From Clostridia bacterium (GTDB lineage: Bacteria; Bacillota; Clostridia; Christensenellales; Borkfalkiaceae): 44,756 nucleotides of DNA. The stretch spans positions 1 through 44,756 of the forward strand of contig JAFTSO010000044.1 of the NCBI GenBank assembly GCA_017467265.1. The letters run 5' to 3'. The notes below the pieces were generated by a model. The model made no database searches, was not told the DNA's origin, and saw nothing but the letters and a program-made list of their open reading frames with translations. A program made the position numbers and the translations under genes. Every line of letters starts with the position of its first letter. Within the stretch, counting starts at the first letter, position 1. This document shows positions 16,901 through 29,150 of this stretch, in pieces.

Positions 16901-17992
16901 ATGATAGAAAAAGTATTGAAACAGGAAGAACGCATTTCGTTAGCATTGCGCTCGTTATATAAAACATACGGATATCAGCCGTATAAGATGAGTAAATTTG
17001 AAGAATACGATCTCTACGTTGCCAACAAGGAATTTTTGGTGGGCGACGGCGTGATCACGTTCAATGATACGGACGGGAAACTGCTGGCGTTAAAGCCAGA
17101 TGTCACGCTCTCCATTATCCGCAACAGCGCGGACAAGGCAGGCAAGCGCAAAGTGTATTACGACGAGAACGTTTATCGTGTTTCGGCAAAAACAAAGCAG
17201 TTTAAGGAGATCCGTCAGGTCGGTTTGGAGTGTATCGGCGCGATCGATCTGTACGACGAATACGAAACGCTGACGCTCGCGGCAGGCAGCCTTGCCGCCA
17301 TTTCCGAAAACTTTGTTTTGGACGTGTCCCATTTGGGCGTGCTGTCGGCGGTGCTTGATAGCGTGTGCACGGACAAAGCCTTTCAGAGAGCGGCGATGGG
17401 GTATCTTGCCGAAAAGAACGTGCACGAAACGGAGCACCTGTGCGATCAGTTCGGTGTGGGCGCGGACGGAAAGAAAACATTGCTGACGCTTTTTACGGCG
17501 TACGGGGAAATGAACGCGGTGTTGGACAAAATCGCGCCTGTTTGTAAGGGCAAGGCAAAGGCGGCATATAAGAAATTGCAGTCGCTGTGCAAATTGCTCT
17601 CTTCGTCGAACTACGCGGATAAAATCCGTCTGGATTTTTCCGTTGTCAACGATATGAATTATTACAGCGACGTAGTGTTCAAAGGTTTTATCGACGGCGT
17701 GGCGGAAGGTGTGCTTTCTGGCGGTAGATACGATAAAATGATGGCGCGACTGGGCAGGAACGCAGGCGCAATCGGGTTTGCGGTATATCTCGACCTTTTA
17801 GACGGGTTTAACGAAGAAAAGAGCGCGACGGACGTGGACGTAGCAGTGTTATACGATGCAAAGACTTCGCTTTCGCAGCTGACAAAAACGGTGGAAAAGC
17901 TGGTGAAAAAAGGCTGTTCCGTCAGCACGCAGACGGCGGAAGGAGTTGTCCGTGCAAAGGAAACCGTGGATTTACGGGGGTGCAAGAGATGA
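16901..17992 (+). CDS. hisZ: ATP phosphoribosyltransferase regulatory subunit
   Basis: This 363-residue protein is the histidyl-tRNA-synthetase-like partner that short-form HisG needs for activity and histidine feedback. The class II synthetase core is seen in ALRSLYKTYGYQPYKMSKFEEY, the motif-2-like LKPDVTLSIIRNSAD, and the end stretch GVLSGGRYDKMMARLGRNAGAIGFAVYL. It lacks the tRNA-binding domain, as expected. The site GGAGG lies 8 bases upstream of the start. Its stop overlaps the hisG start (ATGA), implying translational coupling of the two subunits of one enzyme. It opens the histidine operon. Confidence 0.93.
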   Translation: MIEKVLKQEERISLALRSLYKTYGYQPYKMSKFEEYDLYVANKEFLVGDGVITFNDTDGKLLALKPDVTLSIIRNSADKAGKRKVYYDENVYRVSAKTKQFKEIRQVGLECIGAIDLYDEYETLTLAAGSLAAISENFVLDVSHLGVLSAVLDSVCTDKAFQRAAMGYLAEKNVHETEHLCDQFGVGADGKKTLLTLFTAYGEMNAVLDKIAPVCKGKAKAAYKKLQSLCKLLSSSNYADKIRLDFSVVNDMNYYSDVVFKGFIDGVAEGVLSGGRYDKMMARLGRNAGAIGFAVYLDLLDGFNEEKSATDVDVAVLYDAKTSLSQLTKTVEKLVKKGCSVSTQTAEGVVRAKETVDLRGCKR

Positions 17993-22907: not shown

Positions 22908-23662
22908 TAACGAAAAGAATTATTCCCTGTCTTGACGTAAAGGACGGCAAGGTGGTAAAGGGTGTCAATTTCGAGGGCTTGCGCGAAGTGGCGTCGCCCG
23001 TGGATTTGGCGAAATATTATTCGAAGAGCGGTGCGGACGAGCTGGTATTTTACGACATTACGGCGTCGGCGGAGGGCAGGGCGTTGTTTACGGACGTGTT
23101 GCGCGAGGCGGCAAGCTCGGTGTTTATCCCCCTGACGGTGGGGGGCGGTATCCGTAGCGTGGCGGATTTTGAACGGGTACTCTCTTGCGGCGCGGACAAA
23201 GTCAGCGTTAATTCGGGCGCGATTGCAAACCCGTCGCTCATCAAGGAGGCGGCGCAAAAATACGGCAATCAATGCGTAGTGATTTCTGCGGACGTGAAGC
23301 GTGTGAACGGCTCGTTTCACATGTTTGCAAAGGGCGGCAGAGAGGATACGGGTATGGAAGCGGTGTCGTGGATTAAACGTTGCGTGGACGAGGGCGCAGG
23401 CGAAGTTGTGGTTAATTCCATGGACATGGACGGCGTGAAAAAGGGATTTGATTTGGAGCTCTTAAAGGCGGTTTGCGCGGCGGTGGACGTGCCCGTGATT
23501 GCGTCGGGCGGCGCAGGCAGCGTAGCGGACTTTATCACTTTGTTTAAGGAAATTCCCGATATAGACGCAGGGCTTGCGGCATCGGTGTTCCATTTTGGCG
23601 AAATCGCGATCGCCGATTTGAAAAAGGCGTTGGCGGAAAACGGTATTCCGTTGCGTATCTAA
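22904..23662 (+). CDS. hisF: Imidazole glycerol phosphate synthase, cyclase subunit
   Basis: This 252-residue TIM barrel makes imidazoleglycerol phosphate and AICAR using ammonia from HisH. The start [19 protein letters not shown] holds the first catalytic Asp. [32 protein letters not shown] (second Asp) and [13 protein letters not shown] follow the family pattern. It is a paralogue of hisA, whose stop it overlaps. Confidence 0.97.
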
Positions 23663-23676
23663 AAAGGAGAAAAAAT

Positions 23677-24327
23677 ATGTTGAAGATAGAAGAATTGAAA
23701 TTTGACGAAAAAGGGTTAATTCCCGCCATCGTGGTGGACGCGATGGCGAAAGACGTTTTGACGCTTGCGTATATGAATGCGGAGAGTCTGGCAATCACGA
23801 TGCAAGAACGCAAGACCTGTTTTTATAGCCGCAGCCGTCAGGAACTGTGGCGTAAGGGAGAAACGAGCGGCAATTATCAGCACGTTGTTTCCATTACCGC
23901 AGATTGTGATAAAGATGCGCTGGTGGTGAAGGTGGAAAAGGACGGACCTGCCTGCCACACGGGCGCGGAGAGCTGTTTTTATCAGCCGCTCTATATCGAT
24001 GAAGAACGGCACGAATTTAGCCTGCGCGGTTTGTACGCTTTGCTGGAAGGCAGAAAAGCGGAAATGCCGCAAGGATCTTATACGACGTATCTTTTTGAAA
24101 AAGGCTTGGATAAGATTTTGAAGAAGGTGGGCGAAGAGTGCACGGAAGTGATTATTGCAGGGCACGCGCACGACAACAAAGAAACGATCTACGAGATAGC
24201 CGATCTTGCCTATCACGTGATGGTGTTGATGGTGCAAAACGGAATTACCGTGGACGACGTTGTGAAAGAACTTGCGTCCCGTCACATAATCGATAAAAAA
24301 GTGAAACAGGAAAAAATGACGAAATAA
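23677..24327 (+). CDS. hisIE: Bifunctional phosphoribosyl-AMP cyclohydrolase / phosphoribosyl-ATP pyrophosphatase
   Basis: This 216-residue fusion carries out steps 2 and 3 of histidine synthesis. The N-terminal HisI domain (residues ~1-115) has [33 protein letters not shown] and the zinc-ligand pattern [11 protein letters not shown] with [11 protein letters not shown]. The C-terminal HisE domain (residues ~120-210) has the MazG-like EEs in [14 protein letters not shown] and [22 protein letters not shown] precedes ATG 23677. It is the last gene of the operon. Confidence 0.97.
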
Positions 24328-24342
24328 ATATTGGATAGGTTG

Positions 24343-24385
24343 ACGTTCGCGCGACAATGGTTCGCGCGGGCGTTCTCGCTTTTTT
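24343..24385 (+). terminator. Terminator of the histidine operon
   Basis: A 12-13-bp stem with two G-U pairs (arm ACGTTCGCGCGA from 24343, pairing with TCGCGCGGGCGT from 24362) is followed by TCTCGC and six T. Confidence 0.85.
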
Positions 24386-24406
24386 GGAATTTTAGTGGAC
24401 GAATAT

Positions 24407-24456
24407 GCGTTTTGCTGGGTAAATATAGATAAGAAAACGCAGAGCGTTTTGCTCGG
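24407..24456 (+). promoter_or_regulatory. Palindrome and direct repeats upstream of the LRR gene
   Basis: AAAACGC-AGA-GCGTTTT (24434-24450) is a perfect inverted repeat just before the ribosome binding site. GCGTTTTGCT with a GG two bases on occurs twice (24407 and 24444). These may be operator or mRNA-structure elements; I found no clear -35/-10 pair. Confidence 0.4.
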
Positions 24457-24466
24457 AGGGTTAGTA

Positions 24467-24946
24467 ATGAAGAAAAAAGTGCTCCTTTTTCTAATTTCGG
24501 TATTGACGTTTTGTCTGGGGATATTTTGTTTTGCTGCTTGCAACGTAGAGAGTGGTGGCGGACGTAGCCTTGCTTTTCGCACGCTTACGCGTGACGGAAC
24601 ACAGGTGTACGGGAAGGTGAGCAACGACACGGATTCGTTTAGCTTTGCTAGTGAAATTGCCGTCACAGGCGGCGTGACGTATAGTGTGGCATCTGATCGT
24701 GCAGGGGCGAAAGAAGTGTCGAAAGACAGCGTTGCGCTTTCGGTGGGCGATAACATTTTTTACGTCTTGGAAAAGGAAAATGCGGAGATTGTGGAGACGT
24801 ATCGGGTGACGATACGCCGCCGCCCGATGTACACCGTGACGATTGATACGGGGTGCGAGATTGACGTGGAAACGCAAATTGTGGAAGAAGACGGCTATGC
24901 TACTCTTCCCAGTATATCTAGGGACGGCTATCAATTAGACGGCTAG
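24467..24946 (+). pseudogene. BspA-type LRR surface lipoprotein, N-terminal part up to an in-frame TAG
   Basis: This segment encodes the first 159 residues of a large surface protein. The start is ATG 24467 with GGAGGG seven bases upstream. MKKKVLLFLISVLTFCLG then FAAC is a lipoprotein signal peptide with the lipid-modified Cys near residue 25. A cadherin-like or beta-rich stretch follows (YRVTIRRRPMYTVTI). It then enters the first Listeria-Bacteroides (Flg_new) repeat, ISRDGYQLDG, and stops at TAG 24944-24946. The same frame continues perfectly beyond the TAG (DYDFREPIERDTAIRAQWT), and the repeat normally has Trp at this point, so TGG to TAG explains it. It is either a nonsense mutation, a sequencing error or a readthrough site. 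Confidence 0.85.
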
Positions 24947-27544
24947 GATTATGATTTTAGAGAGCCGATCGAAAGAGATACGGCGATTAGGGCACAATGG
25001 ACGGCGTTGACGACGAAGTACACGGTGCAGCATTATTGCGAAAATTTTGAAAACGACGAATACGTGTTGATGGCGACCGAAGAAAAGAGTGCGCCGACTG
25101 ATAGCGTTGTGTTGGCGGAATTCAGGCAATATGAAAACCGCGAGCCTGTAGATTTGGAAGTGCAAGGCAGAGTTAAGGGGGACGGCTCGCTGTGCTTGGT
25201 TGTGAAATATCAGGTGAAACGTTTTACCGTCACGTTCGACGGACAGGGCGGTTTGTTTGAGAACAATCAGACGAAATATGCGTTGAAAGTTAAGCAAGGA
25301 GCAAAGGCCGATCCTCCCACCGTTTATCGTAAGGGCTACGATTTGGTGGCGTGGGATAAGACGCTGGACGAAGTGACGGAAGACGTGACGGTGACGGCAG
25401 CTTGGGAAATCGTCACGTACGACGTGACGTACGATTGCAACAATGGCGATATGGCAGGCGGTGTGAATCCGTCTACCTATACTGTCGAGACGGATTTTAC
25501 TTTGATTGCGCCGCAACGTAAAGATTACATATTTGTGGGCTGGTATGACCAATACGACGCGCCGATCACGAATTTTCTTGGCTGTGCTGGAACGAAATAT
25601 TTGAAAGCGAGATGGGAACCAGTATTCCTGCATGCAGGCGGAACACTGACGGGGGTGTCTGAGCTGGCGAAGCATTCTTCTTTGCAGTTGACGATTCCTG
25701 ACGAGATCGACGGGACGAAGATTACGAGAATCGGGACATCGGCTTTTGAGAATTGTTCGGCGTTGGAAAAGATCACGATTCCGTTCGGGATTCGGTGGAT
25801 TGAAAATTCGGCGTTTAAGGATTGCGGAAATTTGCGAGAGATTTATTTCAATGCCGATTATTGTGCGGACGCGTACGTGGAAAATCAGGCGTACGAGCCG
25901 TTATTCTATAACGTAGGCGCGAACACGGACGGCGTGACGGTCGTGTTCGGGAAAGACGTGCGGCGTGTGCCTGCGCACCTGTTCTATACGGAATATCAAA
26001 GCGAAATGAACGGCATACCGAATATCAAAACGGTGGTTTTTGAAGACGAGAGTATTTGTACGGAAATCGGCGACAAAGCGTTTGGCAGATGTTGGTATTT
26101 GGAGAACGTCACTTTGCCCGATTCGCTGATAAGTATCGGTATGTACGCGTTTTTTGATTGCAAAACGTTGGTAGAAATCGAAATTCCGCAAGGGGTGGAA
26201 ACTGTTGGAGAAAATGCGTTTTATGCTTCGGGTTTGAAAAAGGCGTCGATTCCCAACAGCGTGACCGTCCTTGGCAATCGAGCTTTTATGGATTGTTTTG
26301 CGTTGGAAACGCTGTATTATAATGCTTCGCAGATTGCGTATTTTTTGCCCTCTAATGACGTTTTTTACGCGACGGGGAGAGATGGAAACGGGATCACCGT
26401 CACGTTTGGTGCGGATATGACGAAAGTGCCTGCGTATATTTTCGATCTTTTCCCCAAGATTGTCAACGTACTGTTTGAAGATGAAACAAAGATTACGGCG
26501 ATCGAAGAAAATGCCTTTTATGGCTGTCAGCAGTTGAAATCGATTTCCATTCCCGACAGCGTGAAATCGATAGGGAAATATGCATTTTATCGATGCATTA
26601 ATTTGTCGGAGCTCGATTTGGGCGAAGGGATTGTTTCCATCGAAGGCAGCGCGTTCTACGGATGCAACGCTTTGACGGAAGTGGTATTGCCAAACAGCGT
26701 AAAAACGGTGGGATCATCGGCGTTTTCCTCTTGCGAAAACTTGACAAAGTTTACCGTTTCCGACACTCTCCAAGAGTGGGGATCTTCGGTATTTTTCGCT
26801 TGTCATAATTTGCAATACAAGTTATATAACAATGGGCACTATATCGGGAGCAAAACAAACCCTTATGCAATATTTGTAAAAGTAGCAGATACGAGCAGAG
26901 CATTGTTCGCCCTGAATTTGAGCACGGAATTTATTTGCGAAAATGCCATGAGCTACTACGAACACCTGCAAGAAATTACAATTCCAAAGGGAGTGAAGAA
27001 AATTCCTTACGCTGCTTTTCAGGGGAGCGGTTTGCAAAAAGTAGTAATCCATGACAATGTGACGGAAATTGGTATGCATGCTTTTGAGAATACGAAGTTG
27101 ACAACGATAACGCTCCCCAAAGGCATTGAAAAAATCCCCGAGCAAGCCTTTTTCTATTGTCAGTCGTTAACGGAGATTGTAATCCCCGGGAACGTAAAAT
27201 CGATCGGCTCGCGCGCCTTTACGGGGTGCGATGCATTGCAATCGGTCGTGTTTGAAGAAGGGGTGGAAAGAATAGAAAGCGAGGCGTTTTGGGGCTGCCA
27301 GAGCGAATCCTTTACGAGTGTGACGATTCCCAAGAGCGTTAACTTTATCGGAAGGTCAGCGTTTGCGTTGACGCATTTGACCAAGATTCGTTTTGAAGAT
27401 CAGGACGGCTGGTTCAAACCGACAAAAACCGATGCGTACGGCACGCCCGTTGCGTGGGAGGCTTTGGACGTGAGCAACAGGCTCACGAACGCAACGACGC
27501 TGCGGTCGAGTTCAACTGCTGCAGCGTGGTATAAAAATCCTTGA
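24947..27544 (+). pseudogene. BspA-type LRR surface lipoprotein, C-terminal part after the TAG
   Basis: This is the in-frame continuation of the preceding entry; read through, the whole protein would be 1025 residues. It completes the first Flg_new repeat, then has two more (Trp in RKGYDLVAWDKT and RKDYIFVGWYDQ). From about 25660 it has some 18 BspA-type leucine-rich repeats of ~23 residues with the pattern SAFENCSALEKITIP, typical of surface adhesins. There is no LPXTG sorting signal, so lipid anchoring by the upstream signal would be the attachment. The automatic start at TTG 25007 has no ribosome binding site and no signal peptide, so an independent gene is unlikely. A terminator follows the TGA stop. 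Confidence 0.85.
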
Positions 27545-27585
27545 ACGCGTTCTTGCGTGCGTTAATAAAAATGAAAAAACTTTTT

Positions 27586-27622
27586 AAGAGAGCTGCTCGG
27601 CGTGTGTCGGGCGGTTCTTTTT
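27586..27622 (+). terminator. Terminator after the LRR gene
   Basis: AAGAG...GCTGCTC pairs, with G-U wobbles, to GGGCGGTTCTT and runs into five T. Stability is moderate. Confidence 0.65.
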
Positions 27623-27729
27623 CTATCAATTTTTTCCATAAAAGCTATTCGATTTTCGAATAATAAATTCTCTTTGATAAAATAAATTGATAAAACGGGA
27701 AATAATTTATCGTAAAAGAGAGTTATGGC
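27623..27729. other. A+T-rich intergenic stretch with an inverted repeat
   Basis: The 334-base gap 27545-27878 holds the terminator, this A+T-rich stretch, the opp promoter and its leader. Here ATTCGA-TTT-TCGAAT (27647-27661) is a perfect inverted repeat, and CTCTTT...AAAGAG arms around 27673-27722 form a longer imperfect one. No gene is visible. Confidence 0.45.
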
Positions 27730-27758
27730 TTGACAAATACTTTTTTTTGGGTTAAAAT
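27730..27758 (+). promoter_or_regulatory. Sigma-A promoter of the lipoprotein-opp operon
   Basis: TTGACA (27730-27735) and TAAAAT (27753-27758) are 17 bases apart. The first start codon lies 120 bases downstream, leaving a leader of about 115 nt with no structure I recognise. Confidence 0.88.
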
Positions 27759-27878
27759 GATAGTTGTGTTATAAGCAAAATTGGGCGATAGTGTCAAAAA
27801 TCGGTATTTTTGTGAAAAAACGAGGAAGAAAATGTCCCATTTTGTCGTTATATACAATATAAGGAAGAGGTTTACTCT

Positions 27879-29150
27879 ATGAGAAGAAAACTGAAAAGAG
27901 CAATGCTATTGCTGTTGTCGGCTTTGGCGGCGTTGCTGATGCTTGTCGGGTGCGAGCTGGGTATGACAAAAGAACAGGCGCTCAGCGGCTACGATTTGAA
28001 AGCGTCCGTCACCTATTACGCTAACGGCGGTGATTTTGGCAACGGGAACACGACGAAAGAGATTTGGTACAAAGCAAACTCTCGTCCGCTTAACATTGGC
28101 GTTGATCCGATGCCTAGCGGTACGTCGATCAATCTAAAATACGACAAACACGATTTTGTGGGTTGGTATCACGTTGCGGTGGACCAAGACGGGAATTTGC
28201 TGATCGGTGAGAACGGACAATGTACGTTGGATATGGAAAAGCCCGTGGATTTCTCGACGGCGGTGCTGTTAGAAGACGACGCGTGGCATTTGGGCGCGTT
28301 GTGGAACGCTAAAGCGAAAGTGCGCGTGCGCCTTGTGAGCGACGGCGTGATCACAGATAAGAAAGGAACGGAGTTCGATCCTGCATCGGATACGGATATT
28401 AAAGTTTCCGACTATCTTTCCACCAACGATTACAAAACGCAATTGGACGTAGGAAAATCCCCGATCGACCTTGCGTCGGGTAGCGCATATCAATTCGTCG
28501 GGTATTATTTTGATCAGGCGGCTACGCAGCCGATCTTGGAAGAATTGCGCCAGCAAGAAGGTCAGACGGAAGACGTAATTATTTACGCGAAGTATATTTC
28601 GAAAGAGTGGACGGTTGTTAAGTCGACAACGGACGTCAAGAATATGATCATGCTGAATATGAAAACAGCAGACAAGAAATTTTACATTGCGCGTGATATT
28701 GATATGTCTACGGTAGATGCGTTTGCGGTATCGAACGGTGTGAATTTGGCGGCGACGATAGAGGGTAATGGCTTCACGATCAGCAATCTGTCAATCAAAA
28801 AGACAAAGATTACTACCGATTTTGCTTTATTCGGGAACGTGAAATCGACGGCGGTGATACGAAATCTTACTTTTGATAATCTCGTTGTGGAATACGGCTT
28901 GAATTCGTCGGTAAACGTATATTTCGTTTGTCTTGGCATTGAAGACGGGGCTACAGTTGAAAACGTAACCATTTCTGGTTCAATGGAAATTGGTGGTATG
29001 GGTAGCGCGAGAAACTTTGAGAACGACTTTAACAGCTGTATGTTTGGCGTATTTGCAACAGACGAAATGTATGAAACCGAACATCCTAACGGATTCAAAG
29101 TGGAAGGGCTGTTGCTCAAATATCAAAAAGAAGAAATAACGATTAAATAA
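27879..29150 (+). CDS. Lipoprotein with InlB-like repeat, first gene of the opp operon
   Basis: This 423-residue lipoprotein has a signal peptide MRRKLKRAMLLLLSALAALL with lipobox LVGC (Cys near residue 25). An InlB/Flg_new-type unit follows (VTYYANGGDFGNG ... HDFVGWYHVA) and a second weaker one (YQFVGYYFDQAATQPI). The C-terminal third looks like the start of a beta-helix or GLUG-type region (FYIARDIDMS, IEGNGFTISNLSI, IRNLTFDNLVV, VENVTISGSM). The gene sits 26 bases before oppA under the same promoter. It may help present or capture peptides at the cell surface, or be an adhesin that shares regulation. I know no characterised relative. Confidence 0.75.
   Translation: MRRKLKRAMLLLLSALAALLMLVGCELGMTKEQALSGYDLKASVTYYANGGDFGNGNTTKEIWYKANSRPLNIGVDPMPSGTSINLKYDKHDFVGWYHVAVDQDGNLLIGENGQCTLDMEKPVDFSTAVLLEDDAWHLGALWNAKAKVRVRLVSDGVITDKKGTEFDPASDTDIKVSDYLSTNDYKTQLDVGKSPIDLASGSAYQFVGYYFDQAATQPILEELRQQEGQTEDVIIYAKYISKEWTVVKSTTDVKNMIMLNMKTADKKFYIARDIDMSTVDAFAVSNGVNLAATIEGNGFTISNLSIKKTKITTDFALFGNVKSTAVIRNLTFDNLVVEYGLNSSVNVYFVCLGIEDGATVENVTISGSMEIGGMGSARNFENDFNSCMFGVFATDEMYETEHPNGFKVEGLLLKYQKEEITIK

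What the first reader, a model, noticed from the sequence alone, without database searches (positions are those of the whole stretch)
24944..24946. In-frame TAG exactly at a conserved Trp of a Flg_new repeat in a 1025-residue LRR lipoprotein
The frame continues without a shift on both sides of the TAG: GYQLDG, stop, DYDFREPIERD. The two later repeats of the same protein have Trp at the same position (GYDLVAW, DYIFVGW), so a TGG to TAG change is the simplest reading. Without readthrough the 2.6 kb LRR part has no signal peptide and no ribosome site. Possible meanings are a recent nonsense mutation, phase-variable or population-level loss of a surface adhesin, regulated amber readthrough, or a base-call error.
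Basis: partly seen in the sequence, partly recalled or inferred. Interest (0 to 1): 0.72.

Follow-up and report, generated by a model that had tools for sequence, protein, structure and literature searches.

The report
Premature stop in an adhesin-like gene
One of several similar surface-protein genes in an uncultured gut-type bacterium carries a single stop codon early in its sequence; this looks like an ordinary knocked-out copy or a draft-genome error rather than a new way of reading the genetic code.

Summary
TAG at 24944-24946 splits one frame (24467-27544) into a 159-residue lipoprotein-like lead and an 865-residue Flg_new/LRR_5 tail, with no frame shift. The column is Trp in 23 of 23 relatives whose match reaches it; 8 of 31 loci examined do not reach it. 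At least three relatives match both pieces in one open frame, so this is one gene.

Nothing positive supports a special decoding system. RF1 is encoded. No CTA-anticodon tRNA is among the 21 tRNAs found, an incomplete set. PylS is over its cut-off in 0 of 57 genus genomes. TAG is a rare but real terminator (14 of 256 sampled ORFs). In the homology-covered part of a 397-kb sample, I judge this the only clean in-frame stop inside a gene. The RNA fold after the stop ranks 4th of 100 windows along the gene.

Best reading: a recent nonsense mutation, possibly strain-level, in one member of a redundant BspA-like family. A consensus error in this 79%-complete, 53-contig draft cannot be excluded without reads. 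Genome-wide recoding is disfavoured; leaky readthrough is possible but unsupported. Ordinary.

The parts
24342..24374 (+). terminator-like stem-loop between the last his gene and the lipoprotein gene
   Evidence: consensus scan; 8 found against 5.1 +/- 2.8 in shuffles, so weak as a class; 13 pairs followed by a T-rich stretch
24455..24460 (+). Shine-Dalgarno-like GGAGGG
   Evidence: sequence
24467..24946 (+). lead ORF, 159 aa: lipoprotein-type signal, cadherin-like region (sub-threshold), first part of Flg_new repeat 1 (sub-threshold)
24944..24946 (+). in-frame TAG at a column that is Trp in relatives
24947..27544 (+). tail, 865 codons in the same frame, no further stop until TGA
25223..25384 (+). 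Flg_new repeat 2 (below family cut-off)
25418..25555 (+). Flg_new repeat 3 (over family cut-off)
25718..27304 (+). BspA-type LRR_5 region, four matches, 355.8 bits in all

Best explanation
This is an ordinary premature stop codon in one member of an expanded family of BspA-like LRR lipoproteins in an uncultured Clostridia-type bacterium. Ribosomes start at 24467 and RF1 ends translation at 24944, releasing a 159-residue lipoprotein with at most the cadherin-like region; the Flg_new and LRR part is not made, or only at trace level. Shown: the frame, the stop, the conserved Trp column, an RF1 gene, and uninterrupted relatives. Inferred: that the base is real in the cells, that the mutation is recent and possibly polymorphic, and that loss is tolerated because of redundancy.
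For: Same frame both sides. Trp in 23 of 23 relatives reaching the column. G063, G001 and G075 match both the lead and the start of the tail in one open frame. RF1 481 bits, over its cut-off, with PAT and GGQ seen in the translation (meaning of the motifs recalled). Redundancy: of 58 LRR_5 matches in this genome 54 lie outside this gene, none with a stop inside the match (a match spans at most about 130 residues), and two other LRR lipoproteins read in full are intact. No second stop in 865 codons: under neutral drift this becomes unlikely (P<0.05) only after about 63-88 substitutions (2.4-3.4%), so a recent event is enough. Belinky et al. 2021 (PMC7918605; [quoted passage not shown]
Against: No reads and no second strain, so the base itself is unverified. 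No close orthologue (best about 50% identity over some 120 residues of the lead), so no dN/dS test of decay or of continued selection. Lead and tail have equal codon scores: no sign of decay, which fits recency but equally an artefact or readthrough. Belinky et al. conclude from conservation and dN/dS below 1 that many in-frame stops in bacteria are not pseudogenes and may be read through (abstract), which is against a general presumption of loss.
Confidence: 0.62

Rival explanations
1. Consensus or base-call error in a draft, metagenome-type assembly; the cells have an intact gene.
For: Assembly has 53 contigs, is 79.37% complete with 3.14% contamination. I judge it the only clean in-frame stop in the homology-covered 110,562 of 396,756 sampled bases, and the 54 LRR_5 matches outside this gene are clean. 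The tail shows no decay.
Against: Single-base substitution errors are uncommon in short-read consensus (recalled); a real recent mutation explains the same facts.
Confidence: 0.25
2. Amber readthrough, leaky or regulated, gives a minor full-length protein besides the 159-residue form.
For: TAG is a rare terminator here (14 of 256 ORFs). The 100 nt from the stop fold better than shuffles (z -2.82, 0 of 200). A genus relative, G070, has another LRR lipoprotein frame with one in-frame TAG. The tail keeps coding character. Belinky et al. argue that readthrough of in-frame stops is frequent in bacteria (abstract).
Against: The window just after the stop ranks 4th of 100 in the same gene. An RF1 gene is present. 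No CTA anticodon in 21 tRNAs (set incomplete). The tRNA-Trp has a five-pair anticodon stem and CCA. PylS over cut-off in 0 of 57. None of the 23 relatives that reach the column shares the stop.
Confidence: 0.09
3. Split gene: the tail is translated on its own from an internal start or coupled re-initiation.
For: Start codons such as TTG 25007 and ATG 25070 lie in frame; one weak promoter-like match begins at 25007.
Against: No clear Shine-Dalgarno sequence (by eye) and no signal peptide at the tail's start; promoter-like matches are not clearly above chance (8 found, 4.6 +/- 2.1 expected); relatives have one continuous frame.
Confidence: 0.03

Closest known systems
Nonsense-interrupted surface-protein genes, e.g. 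Listeria monocytogenes inlA with premature stop codons (PMC12427964, PMC10299213; search listing and start of abstract only)
   Same: LRR surface protein (inlA: recalled) cut short by one in-frame stop in some lineages
   Different: inlA truncations are documented in isolates; here one draft assembly, LRR_5 rather than internalin LRR and a lipoprotein rather than a wall-anchored protein (inlA details recalled), in an uncultured host
In-frame stop codons in bacterial genes (Belinky et al. 2021, PMC7918605; abstract and part 1 of Results)
   Same: Single stop inside an otherwise intact frame
   Different: Their argument rests on stops shared by orthologues and dN/dS below 1; here no relative shares the stop and dN/dS was not computed
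BspA-type LRR_5 proteins / HupY-LrrG adhesin (NF047961)
   Same: Tail matches LRR_5 with 355.8 bits; HupY model 142.8 bits
   Different: Far under the HupY cut-off of 1250 bits (tail alone), so not shown to be HupY

Membership tests
BspA-type LRR protein (PF13306) | LRR_5 repeats over the curated cut-off | tested here: met
   355.8 bits, cut-off 27.7
HupY/LrrG adhesin (NF047961) | Whole-protein score over cut-off | tested here: not met
   142.8 against 1250 bits (tail alone)
Flg_new / Listeria-Bacteroides repeat | Repeat over the family cut-off | tested here: met
   Repeat 3 over the cut-off (31.8 bits); repeat 2 under it (22.7); repeat 1 interrupted, 13.4 bits
Premature-stop (nonsense) allele | Uninterrupted relatives across the site | tested here: met
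   23 of 23 relatives reaching the column have Trp
Premature-stop (nonsense) allele | Stop present in reads of the organism | not testable with these tools
   No reads held
Genome-wide TAG reassignment | TAG as sense codon in several genes; RF1 lost or altered | tested here: not met
   RF1 present; 14 of 256 ORFs end in TAG; no other clean in-frame TAG in the homology-covered part of the own sample
Pyrrolysine decoding | PylS | tested here: not met
   0 of 57 genus genomes over cut-off; 55 of 57 have weak matches under it (27.7 bits at most), as do most controls; 1 of 14 controls is over the cut-off
Amber suppression by tRNA | tRNA with CTA anticodon | tested here: inconclusive
   None in 21 tRNAs, but tRNAs for 8 amino acids are missing from the set found
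Functional readthrough site | Stop conserved among orthologues | tested here: not met
   0 of 23 relatives share the stop; relatives are distant, about 50% identity or less
Functional readthrough site | Purifying selection downstream of the stop | not tested
   Relatives too distant for dN/dS

The most novel reading that the evidence does not exclude
In this genus rare UAG codons inside some LRR lipoproteins are read through at low level, so that cells show mostly a short lipoprotein and sometimes the full surface protein, with the stem-loop after the stop as stimulator. The second in-frame TAG, in an LRR lipoprotein frame of G070, would be a sister case.
Probability: 0.05. Interest if true: 0.55.

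Novelty: new member of a known kind. Interest (0 to 1): 0.12.

Why it matters
As it stands, little: it is one more interrupted copy in a redundant surface-protein family, or a draft error. It matters for annotation, because gene callers may list two unrelated ORFs where relatives have one gene, and as a reminder that single stops in draft genomes need reads before they are called recoding.

Tried and rejected
Genome-wide TAG recoding: rejected (RF1 present, TAG used as terminator, no other clean case in the part tested). Pyrrolysine: rejected. RNA element: the only Rfam match in 23500-28500 at E up to 1 was BSnc120 at 27561-27636, 21.9 bits, far below its gathering score of 114. Repeats at the site: none found.

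A codon-usage scan for interrupted genes failed its own positive control, as it did not list the window TAG; I give it no weight. A first homology scan (13 stops flagged in own DNA, 34 in G063, 8 in G035) was swamped by what look like antisense ORFs. The filtered one flags 6 in own DNA: the window TAG; three together at what looks like a gene junction in L067; two weak ones in L064 (34.8% and 30.8% identity) that I judged by eye as antisense or chance. The 16 flagged in G063 (3 of them TAG) and 11 in G035 (2 TAG) were not sorted one by one; many look antisense by eye, so a real in-frame TAG among them is not excluded. 'Stops inside' reported in the capped list for G007 and G024 are gene boundaries by eye; the one in G070 looks like a true in-frame TAG.

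A plasmid-record protein search gave only distant LRR proteins (33 records, all under 60% identity, none covering 80%). The synteny check in four named relatives (E up to 1e-8, flanks of at most 8 kb) found no his or transporter gene near their copies. The genome-contig scan gave 5 loci, the best 50% over about 120 residues (one at 52% over 27 residues), so no second strain of the species was found there.

Full report
What is there. The window is one contig (C24) of a 1.39-Mb, 53-contig draft, 79.37% complete. Upstream lies a run of genes that I read as a histidine operon (names given by me from protein sequence and order; only the first, a HisRS-like gene at 16901-17992, was searched). After a terminator-like hairpin at 24342-24374 a gene starts at 24467 with GGAGGG upstream and a lipoprotein-type signal ending FAAC (lipobox recalled). 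Its frame runs to 27544 with one interruption, TAG at 24944-24946: 159 codons before, 865 after. The lead has a sub-threshold cadherin-like match (17.5 bits, cut-off 24.2) and the beginning of a Flg_new repeat; the tail has two more Flg_new repeats and an LRR_5 region of 355.8 bits.

Is it one gene? Yes. Of 31 loci brought by the lead searches, 23 have a match that reaches the interrupted column and all 23 have Trp there: 17 by pattern, 6 by eye. The other 8 do not reach it or have no lead match. Some genomes give two loci and the named loci may duplicate unnamed species, so these are not 23 independent species. G063, G001 and G075 match both the lead and the first part of the tail in one open frame, and a G063 protein aligns across the stop with 48% and 56% identity over 25 residues on either side.

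Is the code different? I see no sign of it. RF1 scores 481 bits over its cut-off. TAG ends 14 of 256 non-overlapping ORFs of 150 aa or more in 396,756 bases (5.5%; TAA 175, TGA 67); with a limit of 120 aa it is 17 of 276 here, 19 of 260 in the G063 sample and 21 of 295 in the G035 sample. In my hand-picked list of window genes the 33 other ends (the tail's own end counted) are 23 TAA and 10 TGA, none TAG: notable, but within a rare-codon habit. Three TAG-ended ORFs followed by a long open frame are, by eye, followed by a neighbouring gene. The homology scan flags six stops in the covered part of the own sample (110,562 bases), of which I judge only the window TAG a clean sense-frame stop. No CTA tRNA was found among 21, but Ala, Ile, Lys, Asn, His, Phe, Tyr and Cys tRNAs are also missing from that set, so this is inconclusive. 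The tRNA-Trp has CCA and a five-pair anticodon stem. PylS is over cut-off in 0 of 57.

Is there a readthrough signal? The 100 nt from the stop fold at z -2.82, better than all 200 shuffles. In a scan of 100 windows along the gene, the window that starts just after the stop has z -2.68 and ranks 4th, behind three windows in the LRR part, two of which overlap. This is weak and was selected after the fact. No Rfam family reached its gathering score in 23500-28500. None of the 23 relatives shares the stop.

Recency. The tail has the same codon score as the lead (0.255 and 0.235) and no further stop. Under neutral substitution, absence of a new stop becomes unlikely (P<0.05) after 63-88 substitutions, 2.4-3.4% (indels ignored). 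The event is therefore either recent, not real, or the tail is still selected. I could not separate these: relatives are about 50% identical or less in the lead, so dN/dS was not attempted, and no reads are held.

Context. The genome carries 58 LRR_5 matches, 54 of them outside this gene, none with a stop inside the match. Two other LRR lipoproteins that I read in full (C16 and C7) are intact frames. All 57 genus genomes have Flg_new matches. Loss of one copy is likely to be tolerated (inference). Belinky et al. 2021 (PMC7918605: abstract and part 1 of Results) find in-frame stops in bacterial genes widespread and mostly short-lived; they also conclude, from conservation and dN/dS, that many are not pseudogenes and may be read through. 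Their argument rests on stops shared between orthologues, which is not met here.

Verdict. A correct and careful observation of an ordinary thing: a nonsense allele (0.62) or a consensus error (0.25), with readthrough unlikely (0.09).

Noticed in passing
L132 (G070:C144:6200-8444), frame 1: Another LRR_5 lipoprotein in a genus relative has a single in-frame TAG (context DNF-TAG-ITNEL) where related proteins (e.g. L012, L015) appear by eye to have Tyr; the contig ends soon after.
   Followed up: partly
L036, L043: ARAGORN reports tRNA-Pro with anticodon AGG and tRNA-Leu with anticodon AAG in the own genome, unusual first-position A anticodons (unusual: recalled).
   Followed up: no
L131 (G024:C43:6000-14000): In relative G024 tandem LRR genes lie directly before a gene that by eye looks like hisIE; in the window the LRR gene lies directly after hisIE. 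Possibly a shared neighbourhood.
   Followed up: no
window 27879-29150: A second lipoprotein-like gene of 423 aa beside the broken one has no Pfam or NCBIfam match at E 0.001; an oligopeptide-type ABC transporter set follows.
   Followed up: no
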